Shown in pieces: positions 19,374 to 42,769 of a DNA stretch of 42,769 nt. Under the pieces are notes generated by a model, which was not told where the DNA came from, ran no database searches, and saw only the letters and a list, made by a program, of their open reading frames with translations. This DNA is from Bacillota bacterium (lineage in GTDB: Bacteria > Bacillota > Clostridia > Acetivibrionales > DUMC01): the NCBI GenBank assembly GCA_013314855.1, contig JABUEW010000026.1, forward strand, positions 1-42,769, given 5' to 3'. Made by a program: the position numbers and the translations under genes. Every line of letters begins with the position of its first letter. Within the stretch, counting starts at the first letter, position 1.

Positions 19374-20549
19374 CTACTCTAGGCTTATAACTTTAAATTG
19401 CTTAAATAGTATGAATAAAATAACCATAATAGCGAGTAAAGCAAAGTTTACAATGGTGAAAACCAAAAGGTACTTACCAGGTTTTGAACCATTACTCTTA
19501 CAATATATCCGGAAAGAAATGAGACTTGCAAGAGAGGCAACAAGAGTGCCCATTCCACCTATATTTGCACCTACAAGCAAACCCGAATAATTATTGGTAA
19601 ACCCGGAAAGCATTACAGCAGCTGGCACATTGCTAATAAATTGACTTATTAATATTGTAATTAACATTTCACGGCCAGAAATAAGTTTCCCCAGAATGTT
19701 TATTACATCAGGCATATTTCTAGCATTACCGACAAAAATAAAGAAGCATATAAATGTTAGAAGTAAAGAATAATCTGCTTGCTTATACAATCTTTTATCT
19801 GCTATAAATACTATTACCATTAACAACACCGAAGCTATAACATAGTTTACTATATTGAACACTGATAACAAAGTTAATAGAAAAAGAGCAGAATACAAAA
19901 CTAATTCCTTTGTGTTACTAATCTTTACAATTTCTAAGCCAGTTACATCTACTGGCTCATTTTTTATAGCAAGTATACAGGTAAAGACAAGCAAACCTCC
20001 AATAACAACTACTGGTAACGTGGCAGTAAAAAAGTCGGCAGGAACTATATTGTAAAAAGAATATAGGTATAAGTTCTGAGGATTACCAACAGGTGTCATG
20101 GTACTTCCAATATTAGCTGCCGCTGTCTGTAACGTGATTATCCCAATAGCGAATTTCTCTTTTCCGGATAAAAATAACACAGACAGTGTAAATGGTACAA
20201 ACGCAATGAGAGCTACATCATTTGTAATAAGCATGGATGAGAAAAAACACAAAGCTATCAGTACTAAGGCCAGTTCCCTTGTATTCTTTGTTCTTTTTAA
20301 GAGCCATACGGCAGCTGCCGAGAATAAGTTCAACTTTATAAAGCCACTTATTACAAGCATTAGGCATAAAAGTAAAAGAATCACCTTGGTATCAATATAT
20401 TTTAGATAATTAAGGGAAGGATGGACAAAAAAGCAAGAAATAAGCGCAACTAAACTCGCACATAAAAGCACGACTTGCGATTTTATGAATTGTGTAAATA
20501 CATTAAGCAAATTTACTTTATTAACCTTTTCTATTATTTTACTTTCCAT
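19374..20549 (-). CDS. ArsB/CitM-type anion or organic-acid permease
   Basis: A 391-aa integral membrane protein with about ten hydrophobic segments. It carries the paired signature regions of the ArsB/NhaD/SLC13-like ion transporter superfamily: LITNDVALIAFVPF plus TPVGNPQNLYLY in the first half, and ISNVPAAVMLSGF plus GANIGGMGTLVASLASL in the second. Substrates in this group range from arsenite to citrate and sodium/proton, and the sequence does not decide. No arsenic genes are adjacent. The gene follows a truncated TIM-barrel fragment by 32 nt and may use that gene's promoter; its own ribosome binding site is weak. Confidence 0.8.
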   Translation of the reverse strand: MESKIIEKVNKVNLLNVFTQFIKSQVVLLCASLVALISCFFVHPSLNYLKYIDTKVILLLLCLMLVISGFIKLNLFSAAAVWLLKRTKNTRELALVLIALCFFSSMLITNDVALIAFVPFTLSVLFLSGKEKFAIGIITLQTAAANIGSTMTPVGNPQNLYLYSFYNIVPADFFTATLPVVVIGGLLVFTCILAIKNEPVDVTGLEIVKISNTKELVLYSALFLLTLLSVFNIVNYVIASVLLMVIVFIADKRLYKQADYSLLLTFICFFIFVGNARNMPDVINILGKLISGREMLITILISQFISNVPAAVMLSGFTNNYSGLLVGANIGGMGTLVASLASLISFRIYCKSNGSKPGKYLLVFTIVNFALLAIMVILFILFKQFKVISLE

Positions 20550-23404: not shown

Positions 23405-24790
23405 TTATTCAACTCTGCTCTGTCTCATTGAAAGCAGCTCGGGGAAATACTGCTTGGCAAGGAATTCCATCTCTGCATCACCAATAACAGTAGTTCTGCC
23501 ATTTTCATATTCTTTATCAATCCATTGCTTGATCAAAGCAATTTTTTCGTTCCTTTTATCAATAGCCTTGTCGCCTTTAAGTGAAAAATAGTTGTTCAAC
23601 CATGCAGCAATTCCGGCTAATCCTGAATGTGCATCCACTACGACAACAGGAGGTTTACCCAAAATTTTAGTTGTATCAAATATGTTATAAATTTCTTCAT
23701 CCTTTAAAAGACCGTCTGCATGAATTCCCGCCCTTGTAGCATTAAAAGCTCTTCCAACAAAAGGTGTCCTGGGAGGTATTTCATAGTTGAGTTCATTTTC
23801 AAAATATTCTGCAATTTCCGTTATTACCCTTAAATTCATTCCCCCATCATTTCCCCGAAGCTGTACATATTCAATTACCATTGCTTCTAGGGGAGTGTTT
23901 CCTGTCCTTTCGCCAATTCCCAACAGTGAAGTATTGACAGCTGAAGCACCATAGAGCCAGGCAGTAGTAGAATTGGTTACAGTGCGATAAAAATCATTAT
24001 GTCCGTGCCATTCCAGCCATTCTGAAGGGACCTCGCCATAATTTACTAAACCGTAAATAATTTGAGGTACACTTCTCGGCAAAGCTACACCGGGTATGCT
24101 TACACCAAGGCCCAGAGTATCACAGGCTCTTACCTTTACAGGTATTCCAGCCTGCTTTGATAGTTCCATTAACTTATTTGCAAATGGAAGAACAAAACCA
24201 TAAAAATCAGCCCTGGTAATATCCTCAAAATGGCACCTGGGAATAATACCCGCTTCTAAGGCTGCTATAACTATTTCCAAATAACTATTCATAGCCTGGG
24301 TCCTGTTCATTTTCAATTTCTTAAATATATGGTAGTCAGAACAAGAAACAAGAATTCCTGTTTCTTTTATACCTATTTCTTTAACTAATTGAAAATCTTC
24401 TTTTCTGGCCCTGATCCACGCAGTAACCTGGGGAAAGTCATAGCCCTTTTCCATGCATTTTACTACAGCTTCCCTATCTTTTTTTGAATAAACAAAAAAT
24501 TCACTTTGTTTAATAATGCCGCTTCCATTGTCCAATTTGTGCAGTAAATCAAACAATTTGCATATCTCTTCCACAGTATACGGAGAACGCGACTGTTGTC
24601 CATCTCTAAAAGTAGTATCAGTTATACAGAGATTTTCAGGAATATTCATAGGAACAATCCTATGGTTAAACACTAATCTTGGAACTTCATTGTACGGATA
24701 TATGTTGCGAAATAGATTAGCCTCCTTTACATCTCTGTATTGAAATTCTATCTCCATCATTCTTGTAGATTTATTGTATTTAACGTTCAC
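23405..24790 (-). CDS. Probable (Re)-citrate synthase, isopropylmalate-synthase-like
   Basis: A 461-aa HMGL/DRE-TIM protein of the isopropylmalate/homocitrate synthase superfamily. The active-site entry is CITDTTFRDGQQSR (about 55-68) in place of the DTTLRDGEQ of LeuA. Metal ligands are HGHND (262-266), followed by GIGERTGNTPLE (291-302). It has a ~50-residue N-terminal extension and no LeuA C-terminal regulatory domain. This layout and the FRDGQQ form match, as far as I recall, the Re-citrate synthase described in Clostridium kluyveri, which condenses acetyl-CoA and oxaloacetate in anaerobes lacking GltA, feeding 2-oxoglutarate and glutamate. The GTG start 24790 has AAAGGAGG 6 nt upstream. 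A c-di-AMP riboswitch and terminator precede it. Homocitrate or another alpha-isopropylmalate-like reaction remains possible. Confidence 0.75.
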   Translation of the reverse strand: MNVKYNKSTRMMEIEFQYRDVKEANLFRNIYPYNEVPRLVFNHRIVPMNIPENLCITDTTFRDGQQSRSPYTVEEICKLFDLLHKLDNGSGIIKQSEFFVYSKKDREAVVKCMEKGYDFPQVTAWIRARKEDFQLVKEIGIKETGILVSCSDYHIFKKLKMNRTQAMNSYLEIVIAALEAGIIPRCHFEDITRADFYGFVLPFANKLMELSKQAGIPVKVRACDTLGLGVSIPGVALPRSVPQIIYGLVNYGEVPSEWLEWHGHNDFYRTVTNSTTAWLYGASAVNTSLLGIGERTGNTPLEAMVIEYVQLRGNDGGMNLRVITEIAEYFENELNYEIPPRTPFVGRAFNATRAGIHADGLLKDEEIYNIFDTTKILGKPPVVVVDAHSGLAGIAAWLNNYFSLKGDKAIDKRNEKIALIKQWIDKEYENGRTTVIGDAEMEFLAKQYFPELLSMRQSRVE

Positions 24791-24995
24791 AATATACCTC
24801 CTTTTCTAAATTTTACCATGTTATTATTTATGAAATTAGACCATTGGACAAAGCAGGATTTCTCAAAATAACTTTAAACCTGAACTTTATACCTGCCTCT
24901 CCTTTTAACAATCTTATACAAAACTTAAAATTCATCACTTTGGACTAAAACATGATAGAAACAAAGAGTAAAGCAAAGACTATCATTTAAAATTA

Positions 24996-25034
24996 AAAGC
25001 GGTTATCACCTAACCCGTTTGTGAAAACCGCTTT
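24996..25034 (-). terminator. Intrinsic terminator of the c-di-AMP riboswitch
   Basis: On the minus strand, AAAGCGGTTTTCAC and GTGATAACCGCTTT pair over 14 bp with one mismatch, followed by TTTTAATTTT. It begins 25 nt after the riboswitch core and ~205 nt before the citrate synthase start, the normal place for the expression platform. The leader between it and the gene (24791-24995) contains nothing else recognisable. Confidence 0.75.
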
Positions 25035-25059
25035 AAGGTAAAAGTCTCCCCCTTCCCCT

Positions 25060-25204
25060 CAAAGCTTCCGAGGTTAGCTGACGGATTCGGGCCGAAAGGA
25101 ATTAGCCCTACCGGAATGTCCAGCGGTTTTCTACCGTAGACCTTTACCGGATTCACCCCAGTATATTGGTTCCCCCGTATCCTGTAATTGAGTTATTTTA
25201 CAGG
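25060..25204 (-). ncRNA. Cyclic di-AMP riboswitch (ydaO/yuaA type)
   Basis: On the minus strand the conserved blocks occur in order: a 5' hairpin CCTGTAAAA...TTACAGG (25204-25181); GGGGGAACCAAT; GGGGTGAATCCGG; GGTAGGGCTAA; then CGAATCCGTCAGCTAACCTCG (25089-25069). These blocks and their spacing are the ydaO-yuaA signature, whose ligand is c-di-AMP and which usually turns expression off when ligand is bound. Known targets are mostly potassium transport, osmolyte uptake and cell-wall hydrolases. Here the next gene downstream is the probable Re-citrate synthase, not one of those. Confidence 0.93.
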
Positions 25205-25324
25205 AATTCAGCATTCACAACCTATTAGTTTATGTTATGAATTAATTTATGTTCTTGTGGTTTATTTCTTAATACAACTATTAAACTTCGTAATTATACT
25301 CTATTATATTCTATTATAGATTAT

Positions 25325-25353
25325 ATTTTATCATAAAAAATATAGGTTTACAA
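25325..25353 (-). promoter_or_regulatory. Candidate sigma-A promoter of the riboswitch transcript
   Basis: On the minus strand, TTGTAA (25353-25348) and TAAAAT (25330-25325) are separated by 17 nt, upstream of the riboswitch and downstream of the hydrolase stop at 25377. Transcription would start near 25318 and give a ~530-nt leader. Several alternative TATAAT-like boxes lie in the same AT-rich stretch. Confidence 0.4.
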
Positions 25354-42646: not shown

Positions 42647-42769
42647 GTAGAGTAAAGGACAGGTGGCCACCTGCCCCTTCTCATCAAACCGTACGTGAAG
42701 TTTTCCCTCATACGGCTTTCCAATGTTCTTTCCTCCCTCAGCTTGCGGAGTATGAGGCTAGCGTCACTA
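42647..42769 (-). ncRNA. 3' end of a group II intron (domains V and VI), cut by the window edge
   Basis: On the minus strand, positions 42719-42686 form a 34-nt hairpin of exactly domain V size and type: AAAGCCGTATG, GAAAA loop region, CACGTACGGTTT. It is followed by a second hairpin, GGGGCAGGTGGCCACCTGTCC, then TTTACTCTAC, which fits domain VI with a bulged A and a 3' end in AC near 42647. The intron body and any reverse transcriptase lie to the right of the window. Confidence 0.8.

What the first reader, a model, noticed from the sequence alone, without database searches (positions are those of the whole stretch)
23405..25353. c-di-AMP riboswitch placed ahead of a probable Re-citrate synthase
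Seen: an unmistakable ydaO-type aptamer with a downstream terminator on the minus strand, and the next gene in that direction is an isopropylmalate-synthase-like protein with the FRDGQQ motif. Known: this riboswitch class usually controls potassium, osmolyte and cell-wall genes, and in Listeria c-di-AMP inhibits pyruvate carboxylase and so limits citrate and glutamate synthesis. Inference: this organism may reach the same end by RNA control, cutting citrate and hence glutamate (the potassium counter-ion) when c-di-AMP is high. I know of no description of a c-di-AMP riboswitch on a citrate synthase gene.
Basis: partly seen in the sequence, partly recalled or inferred. Interest (0 to 1): 0.78.

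Follow-up and report, generated by a model that had tools for sequence, protein, structure and literature searches.

The report
c-di-AMP riboswitch controlling second citrate synthase
An RNA switch of a kind that senses the messenger c-di-AMP sits directly in front of a spare citrate synthase gene, and the same pairing recurs in distant bacteria, which suggests that these cells turn on an extra carbon supply for making protective solutes when the messenger is low.

Summary
RF00379 matches at 25223-25048 (-) with 90.9 bits (cut-off 38); a mutually exclusive antiterminator/terminator follows, then a 461-aa Re-citrate-synthase-like gene ("ReCS2"). The pairing is conserved: of 20 ReCS2 genes found in whole genomes, 19 have a c-di-AMP riboswitch upstream and the twentieth is cut by a contig end. 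None of 105 other Re-CS genes examined has one; nor do 6 MAG members of the wider clade. In 7 of the 19 a glutamate-2,3-aminomutase-like gene (EAM; beta-glutamate, an osmolyte) lies between; in the window's own genome EAM sits elsewhere under its own c-di-AMP riboswitch. In 7 genomes of one genus, one of them Caldicellulosiruptor bescii, the aptamer ends 5-7 nt before ReCS2: a ribosome-site platform instead of a terminator. The own genome also has a Re-CS beside aconitase and a PF00285 citrate synthase. So the switch probably does not shut citrate down; it gates a dedicated extra citrate-to-glutamate/beta-glutamate supply for osmotic adaptation. Ligand binding, enzyme stereochemistry and the osmolyte role are inferred.

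The parts
25325..25353 (-). promoter-like site TTGTAA-17-TAAAAT with TG before the second hexamer, upstream of the aptamer
   Evidence: consensus match only, 9 of 12; not proof of a promoter
25048..25223 (-). c-di-AMP (ydaO/yuaA) riboswitch aptamer, RF00379
   Evidence: cmscan 90.9 bits, full length; 40 columns invariant among 20 aligned aptamers
25057..25065 (-). antiterminator 5' arm GCUUUGAGG, overlapping the 3' strand of aptamer helix P1
   Evidence: fold; pair counts in 13 leaders
25030..25038 (-). antiterminator 3' arm CCUUAAAGC, shared in part with the terminator's 5' arm
24989..25034 (-). intrinsic terminator: 9-bp stem with 4 inner pairs (25034-24996), then U tract
   Evidence: fold -16.1 kcal/mol, z -3.4; pair counts
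24797..24802 (-). Shine-Dalgarno AGGAGG of the Re-CS gene
   Evidence: read from the sequence
23405..24790 (-). ReCS2: Re-citrate-synthase-like protein, 461 aa, predicted target of the riboswitch

Best explanation
This is a c-di-AMP-type OFF riboswitch that directly controls a specialised paralogue of Re-citrate synthase (ReCS2). Shown by sequence: aptamer, mutually exclusive antiterminator and terminator, then ReCS2; the same switch recurs on ReCS2 in many genomes. Inferred from the known class: with c-di-AMP bound, helix P1 holds the antiterminator's 5' arm, the terminator forms and ReCS2 is off; when c-di-AMP falls (osmotic or K+ stress) the antiterminator forms and ReCS2 is made. Inferred from pathways: ReCS2 adds acetyl-CoA to oxaloacetate beyond the housekeeping citrate synthases, feeding citrate to 2-oxoglutarate to glutamate, and, with the EAM-like enzyme under a sister riboswitch, beta-glutamate: anionic solutes that balance K+ and osmotic pressure. 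In Caldicellulosiruptor the same gene is probably switched at translation.
For: Aptamer and platform. ReCS2: riboswitch in 19 of 20 genes from whole genomes, the other cut by a contig end; 0 of 105 other Re-CS genes examined (93 of them with 1.4 kb or more upstream), and 0 of 7 second copies in the Caldicellulosiruptor-type genomes. Direct, without EAM: 5 terminator-type genomes and 7 of the Caldicellulosiruptor type; two different expression platforms on one gene. EAM between switch and ReCS2 in 7, and beside ReCS2 in the cut one. Own genome: EAM under its own c-di-AMP riboswitch; of 20 aligned aptamers it and the window's are each other's closest (85.8%). 16 of 28 EAM genes of the class sample have a c-di-AMP riboswitch upstream. 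The other two riboswitches of the genome lie before copies of an NlpC/P60 cell-wall gene. A diadenylate cyclase domain is present. PMC9337991 (passages): a c-di-AMP riboswitch terminates transcription in vitro ahead of ablA, an osmolyte gene, and eam is named as a beta-glutamate osmoprotectant gene (there with Na+ riboswitches).
Against: No ligand-binding, RNA or enzyme data for any of these loci. 6 members of the wider ReCS2 clade from the named collection lack both riboswitch and EAM (L055-L060), so the enzyme can exist without the switch. All 10 riboswitch-linked EAM genes that I scanned score 611-641 bits, under the TIGR04368 cut-off of 650; the one scanned EAM that passes (G076, 684) has no riboswitch. 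No EAM was found in G001 (draft, 89% complete), and EAM in Caldicellulosiruptor was not searched. In G043 ReCS2 lacks about 130 residues near its N-terminus. Covariation of the terminator is modest: 184 of 500 shuffles reach its number of doubly changed pairs. A weak promoter in the window's spacer cannot be excluded.
Confidence: 0.7

Rival explanations
1. One reading: the switch is the cell's main brake on citrate and glutamate synthesis, an RNA counterpart of c-di-AMP inhibition of pyruvate carboxylase.
For: Same pathway step and the same messenger; glutamate is a K+ counter-ion (general knowledge; PMC8822347 seen as search listing).
Against: A Re-CS beside aconitase and a PF00285 citrate synthase exist in the same genome; the 7 Caldicellulosiruptor-type genomes likewise have a second Re-CS without a riboswitch.
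Confidence: 0.14
2. The riboswitch is a leftover of an EAM operon; after EAM moved away ReCS2 is read from its own promoter in the spacer.
For: EAM lies between switch and ReCS2 in 7 relatives; the spacer is 205 nt long with one 9-of-12 promoter-like match.
Against: Terminator and antiterminator are kept in the sister genome while the spacer is not; no EAM remnant (tblastn best E 0.84 in the window's spacer, 0.73 over the four spacers tried); direct pairing with 37 nt or less behind the platform in G152, G833 and 7 Caldicellulosiruptor-type genomes; in the tree the first branch of the clade has the direct arrangement (split supported 90/82).
Confidence: 0.07
3. ReCS2 is not a citrate synthase but another acyltransferase of the family (for example homocitrate or a new hydroxy-acid synthase) making a different osmolyte.
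For: The family is prone to misannotation (PMC12016533, passages); ReCS2 is a distinct clade, about 60-65% identical to the own housekeeping Re-CS.
Against: Far below the curated cut-offs of homocitrate, isopropylmalate and citramalate synthases (154 against 463 bits at best); FRDGQQ, HGHNDF and GERTGN motifs identical in the Re-CS copy of G016 and that of C. ragsdalei.
Confidence: 0.1
4. ReCS2 makes citrate that is itself the useful anion (counter-ion or exported chelator), rather than feeding glutamate.
For: No aconitase beside ReCS2 in the relatives' loci searched; a CitMHS-type permease lies 2.9 kb away in the window.
Against: Repeated operon link with an EAM-like gene, whose substrate would be glutamate. 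Linkage of the permease in relatives was not tested.
Confidence: 0.09

Closest known systems
c-di-AMP riboswitch (ydaO/yuaA, RF00379)
   Same: aptamer core, P1-overlapping antiterminator and terminator, predicted OFF logic
   Different: target is a citrate synthase paralogue; a ribosome-site platform in Caldicellulosiruptor
Na+/c-di-AMP tandem riboswitch on ablA of Dehalobacter sp. CF (PMC9337991, passages)
   Same: c-di-AMP riboswitch turns off an aminomutase gene for a beta-amino-acid osmolyte
   Different: here the glutamate rather than the lysine branch, no Na+ riboswitch found in the window, and the carbon-supply gene is controlled too
Re-citrate synthase of C. kluyveri and C. thermocellum (PMC6115520, passages)
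   Same: same protein family and active-site motifs
   Different: in C. thermocellum the gene lies beside aconitase; ReCS2 is a separate clade under a riboswitch
c-di-AMP control of pyruvate carboxylase (some bacteria; DarB in B. subtilis, PMC8822347, listing)
   Same: messenger acts on carbon flow towards glutamate
   Different: protein-level, one step earlier; here RNA-level on a paralogue

Membership tests
RF00379 c-di-AMP riboswitch | covariance score over the gathering cut-off | tested here: met
   90.9 against 38 bits
RF00379 c-di-AMP riboswitch | conserved core of the aptamer | tested here: met
   40 columns invariant in 20 aptamers including the window's
RF00379 c-di-AMP riboswitch | expression platform able to switch (antiterminator against terminator) | tested here: met
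RF00379 c-di-AMP riboswitch | binds c-di-AMP and lowers expression | not testable with these tools
   needs in-line probing and in vitro transcription
Re-citrate synthase (C. kluyveri type) | HMGL-like TIM barrel with FRDGQQ and HGHND motifs | tested here: met
   PF00682, 111 bits; motifs invariant in 7 aligned members
Re-citrate synthase (C. kluyveri type) | not an isopropylmalate, homocitrate or citramalate synthase by curated models | tested here: met
   all 20 NCBIfam matches listed are far below their cut-offs
Re-citrate synthase (C. kluyveri type) | similarity to an experimentally supported Re-CS | tested here: inconclusive
   64% identical to a copy beside aconitase in G016, whose 3,843,301-bp contig I recall as C. 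thermocellum ATCC 27405; the C. kluyveri protein itself was not at hand
Re-citrate synthase (C. kluyveri type) | Re-face citrate formation | not testable with these tools
   enzyme assay needed
Glutamate 2,3-aminomutase (TIGR04368), for the linked EAM genes | curated cut-off of 650 bits | tested here: not met
   best family each time, but 0 of 10 riboswitch-linked genes scanned reach it (611-641 bits; own genome 640.6); lysine 2,3-aminomutase is next at 421-462 bits, cut-off 525; hence called EAM-like

The most novel reading that the evidence does not exclude
Across several clostridial families and Caldicellulosiruptor, c-di-AMP controls a solute-synthesis regulon at the RNA level: a dedicated citrate synthase paralogue supplying carbon and, in the clostridial genomes, a glutamate-2,3-aminomutase-like enzyme turning it into beta-glutamate. 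The second messenger would thus gate the entry of carbon into the oxidative TCA branch for osmotic purposes, separately from housekeeping citrate synthesis, which also gives a reason why these bacteria keep two or three citrate synthases.
Probability: 0.55. Interest if true: 0.72.

Novelty: new variant of a known kind. Interest (0 to 1): 0.62.

Why it matters
c-di-AMP riboswitches are known on K+ transport, cell-wall and osmolyte genes (general knowledge and PMC9337991, passages); a carbon-entry enzyme of central metabolism would be a new kind of target. PMC6115520 (passages) calls it an open question why clostridia carry two stereotypes of citrate synthase; a riboswitch-controlled copy offers a concrete, testable answer for one extra copy. 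Because the pairing exists in C. bescii DSM 6725, a species in which gene deletions have been made and whose osmotolerance is studied for biofuel use (PMC7071700, listing and passages), the prediction can be tested directly.

Tried and rejected
Considered and dropped: (1) a stranded riboswitch: disfavoured by direct pairing in 12 of 19 genomes, with two platforms. (2) An EAM remnant in the spacer: tblastn on the spacers of four direct loci gave only hits with E of 0.1 or more. (3) A second RNA element in the leader: none up to E = 1. (4) The 'TAG inside' flag on the own second Re-CS: an ordinary 456-aa open frame, so intact. (5) The only citrate synthase of the cell: rejected. (7) Papers, by search listing unless said: 'c-di-AMP riboswitch' with 'citrate synthase' 0; 'ydaO' with 'citrate synthase' 5, passages read of 2, no link there; c-di-AMP, riboswitch and aminomutase 1, PMC9337991; with beta-glutamate 1, the same; six terms with osmolyte, glutamate and citrate 6, of which only PMC9337991 was opened; 'ydaO' with 'aminomutase' 1, the same; Caldicellulosiruptor with c-di-AMP 1, unrelated by title and abstract start; a five-term search 278, 15 listed. 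The library lacks most subscription papers, and Nelson 2013 is not held, so its target lists were not checked. No structure prediction was run; it would not settle stereochemistry.

Limits of the counts. The 105 other Re-CS genes come from capped lists: the best 80 of 591 relatives in genome contigs and at most 30 loci per genome search; 21 rows, among them weaker second copies in G022 and G023 (58-60%), got no locus and were not examined. ReCS2 was sought outside the order at E of 1e-212 or 1e-230 and below, so members under about 70% identity would be missed. Riboswitch presence rests on an nhmmer model built from alignment A1, checked by Rfam on a part of the loci. Pair counts used 13 of the 21 leaders listed; the 8 left out, and those of L141 and L037, have other terminator sequences or none that my pattern found. 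Trees: the 123-row tree was a quick one; the careful one used 56 hand-chosen rows (12 ReCS2, 6 near relatives, 30 other earlier rows, 8 new: 4 of 7 Caldicellulosiruptor-type ReCS2, 3 of 7 of their second copies, and G833).

Full report
OBSERVATION. Rfam RF00379 matches the minus strand at 25223-25048 with 90.9 bits, full model length; nothing else in Rfam reaches E = 1 between 24700 and 25500. The leader then carries two alternative hairpins. GCUUUGAGG (25065-25057), which overlaps the 3' strand of aptamer helix P1, can pair with CCUUAAAGC (25038-25030); the last bases of that arm are also the start of the terminator stem 25034-24996, followed by a U tract. Counted on 13 aligned leaders (of 21 listed), the antiterminator forms 92.3% of cells with changes on both sides of 3 of 9 pairs (1 of 500 shuffles reaches this number); the terminator forms 94.9%, with 8 cells changed on both sides (2 of 500) but only 2 pairs so changed (184 of 500). 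This is the OFF architecture described for the class in PMC9337991 (passages). The first gene downstream, 205 nt after the terminator stem, is 23405-24790: 461 aa, HMGL-like, FRDGQQ, behind AGGAGG.

WHAT THE GENE IS. NCBIfam has no model that claims it; homocitrate, isopropylmalate and citramalate synthase models match far below their cut-offs. PMC6115520 (passages) reports for C. thermocellum DSM 1313 a Re-CS gene 61% identical to the verified C. kluyveri enzyme, next to aconitase, with labelling support for Re activity, and a Si-type enzyme besides. The motifs FRDGQQ, HGHNDF and GERTGN are invariant in 7 aligned members. I call the window's protein ReCS2. The own genome also holds an intact second Re-CS (456 aa, 63% identical) beside aconitase, and a PF00285 citrate synthase in the same cluster. 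Only 206 nt upstream of that second Re-CS are on the contig, so a riboswitch there is excluded only by its relatives.

THE PAIRING IS CONSERVED. Genome searches with the protein (3, 58, 391, 33, 398 and 30 genomes, overlapping samples) brought 20 ReCS2 genes: 13 in the window's class and 7 in one genus of another class. A c-di-AMP riboswitch lies upstream on the same strand in 19; in the twentieth (G399) the contig ends inside EAM, and another contig of that genome ends inside an EAM fragment preceded by a riboswitch. Of 105 Re-CS genes examined outside the clade none has one (99 with at least 400 nt, 93 with at least 1400 nt of upstream sequence); nor have the 7 second copies in the other genus. 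In a tree of 56 rows all riboswitch-linked genes fall into one clade (support 100/99) of 23 rows; its other 6 rows, the named MAG loci L055-L060, have neither riboswitch nor EAM. Loss there, or repeated gain elsewhere, is not resolved.

TWO ARRANGEMENTS AND TWO PLATFORMS. (a) Direct with terminator: window, G001, G152, G833, G076, aptamer-to-start gaps 257, 203, 98, 98 and 329 nt; in G152 and G833 the U tract ends 37 nt before the start codon. (b) Through EAM: G050, G043, G128, G101, G178, G069 and G443 have switch, EAM, ReCS2 in a row on one strand; in G043 a racemase-like and a D-Ala-D-Ala-ligase-like gene lie in between and ReCS2 lacks about 130 residues near its N-terminus. (c) Direct at the ribosome-binding site: all 7 genomes of genus g374 in which ReCS2 was found (nhmmer; Rfam in 4 of 4 examined). 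One of them is Caldicellulosiruptor bescii DSM 6725, identified by its plasmid NC_012036.1 at 100%. The aptamer ends 5-7 nt before the start codon and GGGAGG lies just behind P1. All 7 hold a second Re-CS without a riboswitch. Of four such loci read more widely, aconitase follows closely in one (L210), begins about 2.8 kb downstream in another (L212), and is not seen within about 2.5 kb in two, C. bescii included (L206, L208). The tree splits (c) off first (90/82), so direct control may be the older state, but the changes of arrangement are few and weakly supported.

THE EAM LINK. In the own genome an EAM-like gene on another contig has its own c-di-AMP riboswitch; of 20 aligned aptamers it and the window's are each other's closest (85.8%), as if one switch had been copied when the pair was split. 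G152 shows the same split. In the class sample 16 of 28 EAM genes have a c-di-AMP riboswitch upstream: 16 of 21 at 66% identity or more to the own EAM, 0 of 7 below. In G053 a Na+ riboswitch, just over its cut-off (41.3 against 40.5 bits), precedes the c-di-AMP one. Glutamate 2,3-aminomutase is the best NCBIfam match of all 10 riboswitch-linked EAM genes scanned, but all lie 9 to 39 bits under its cut-off, and the one scanned gene over it (G076) has no riboswitch; hence 'EAM-like'. The genome's two other riboswitches precede identical copies of an NlpC/P60 gene, and one diadenylate cyclase domain is present.

MECHANISM. Shown: parts, their order, conservation, and the competing helices. Inferred from the class: bound c-di-AMP stabilises P1, frees the terminator's 5' arm and stops transcription; low c-di-AMP lets ReCS2 be made. 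Inferred from pathway knowledge: ReCS2 feeds 2-oxoglutarate and glutamate, and EAM turns glutamate into beta-glutamate, named an osmoprotectant product in PMC9337991. I therefore read ReCS2 as the dedicated carbon-supply arm of an osmolyte regulon, not as the brake on all citrate.

NOVELTY. The riboswitch is an ordinary member of RF00379; the target and the two-gene regulon are what looks new. My searches of the held library showed, in listings and in the passages read, no link of a c-di-AMP riboswitch with a citrate synthase; the original target lists (Nelson 2013) were not held, so this is not proof of absence. The nearest published case I saw is the c-di-AMP riboswitch on ablA of Dehalobacter sp. 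CF.

LIMITS. No expression, binding or enzyme data. Most genomes are drafts of unnamed origin. Further limits of the counts are under Tried and rejected.

Noticed in passing
L040 1347-7460 (G000:C4): A 6114-bp exact direct duplication (offset 12,540) that carries a c-di-AMP riboswitch, an NlpC/P60 SH3 gene and a competence-protein (ComEC-like) gene; real or an assembly artefact.
   Followed up: partly
L152 1019-1339 (G053): Na+ riboswitch (RF03071, just over its cut-off) followed by a c-di-AMP riboswitch ahead of an EAM-like gene: the tandem published for ablA, here on eam.
   Followed up: no
L037 2922-8743 (G043): Riboswitch, EAM, ornithine-racemase-like, D-Ala-D-Ala-ligase-like, shortened ReCS2, MscS channel in a row; the racemase/ligase pair beside a beta-glutamate enzyme is unexplained.
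   Followed up: partly
L136 1542-4162 and loci L135, L139, L173: An MreB gene follows ReCS2 on the same strand (MreB in L136, the others by blastp cluster).
   Followed up: no
window 42647-42720 (-): Group II intron domain at the end of the window (RF00029, 51.4 bits).
   Followed up: no
window 19377-20549 (-): CitMHS-type permease gene in the same window, 2.9 kb from ReCS2.
   Followed up: no
L038 4745-4892 (G001): TwoAYGGAY RNA just over its cut-off (44.4 against 43 bits) in the sister genome; not at that level in the window.
   Followed up: no
L055-L060: Relatives of ReCS2 (71-77%) in Actinomycetota, Oscillospiraceae and other clostridial MAGs without riboswitch or EAM.
   Followed up: partly
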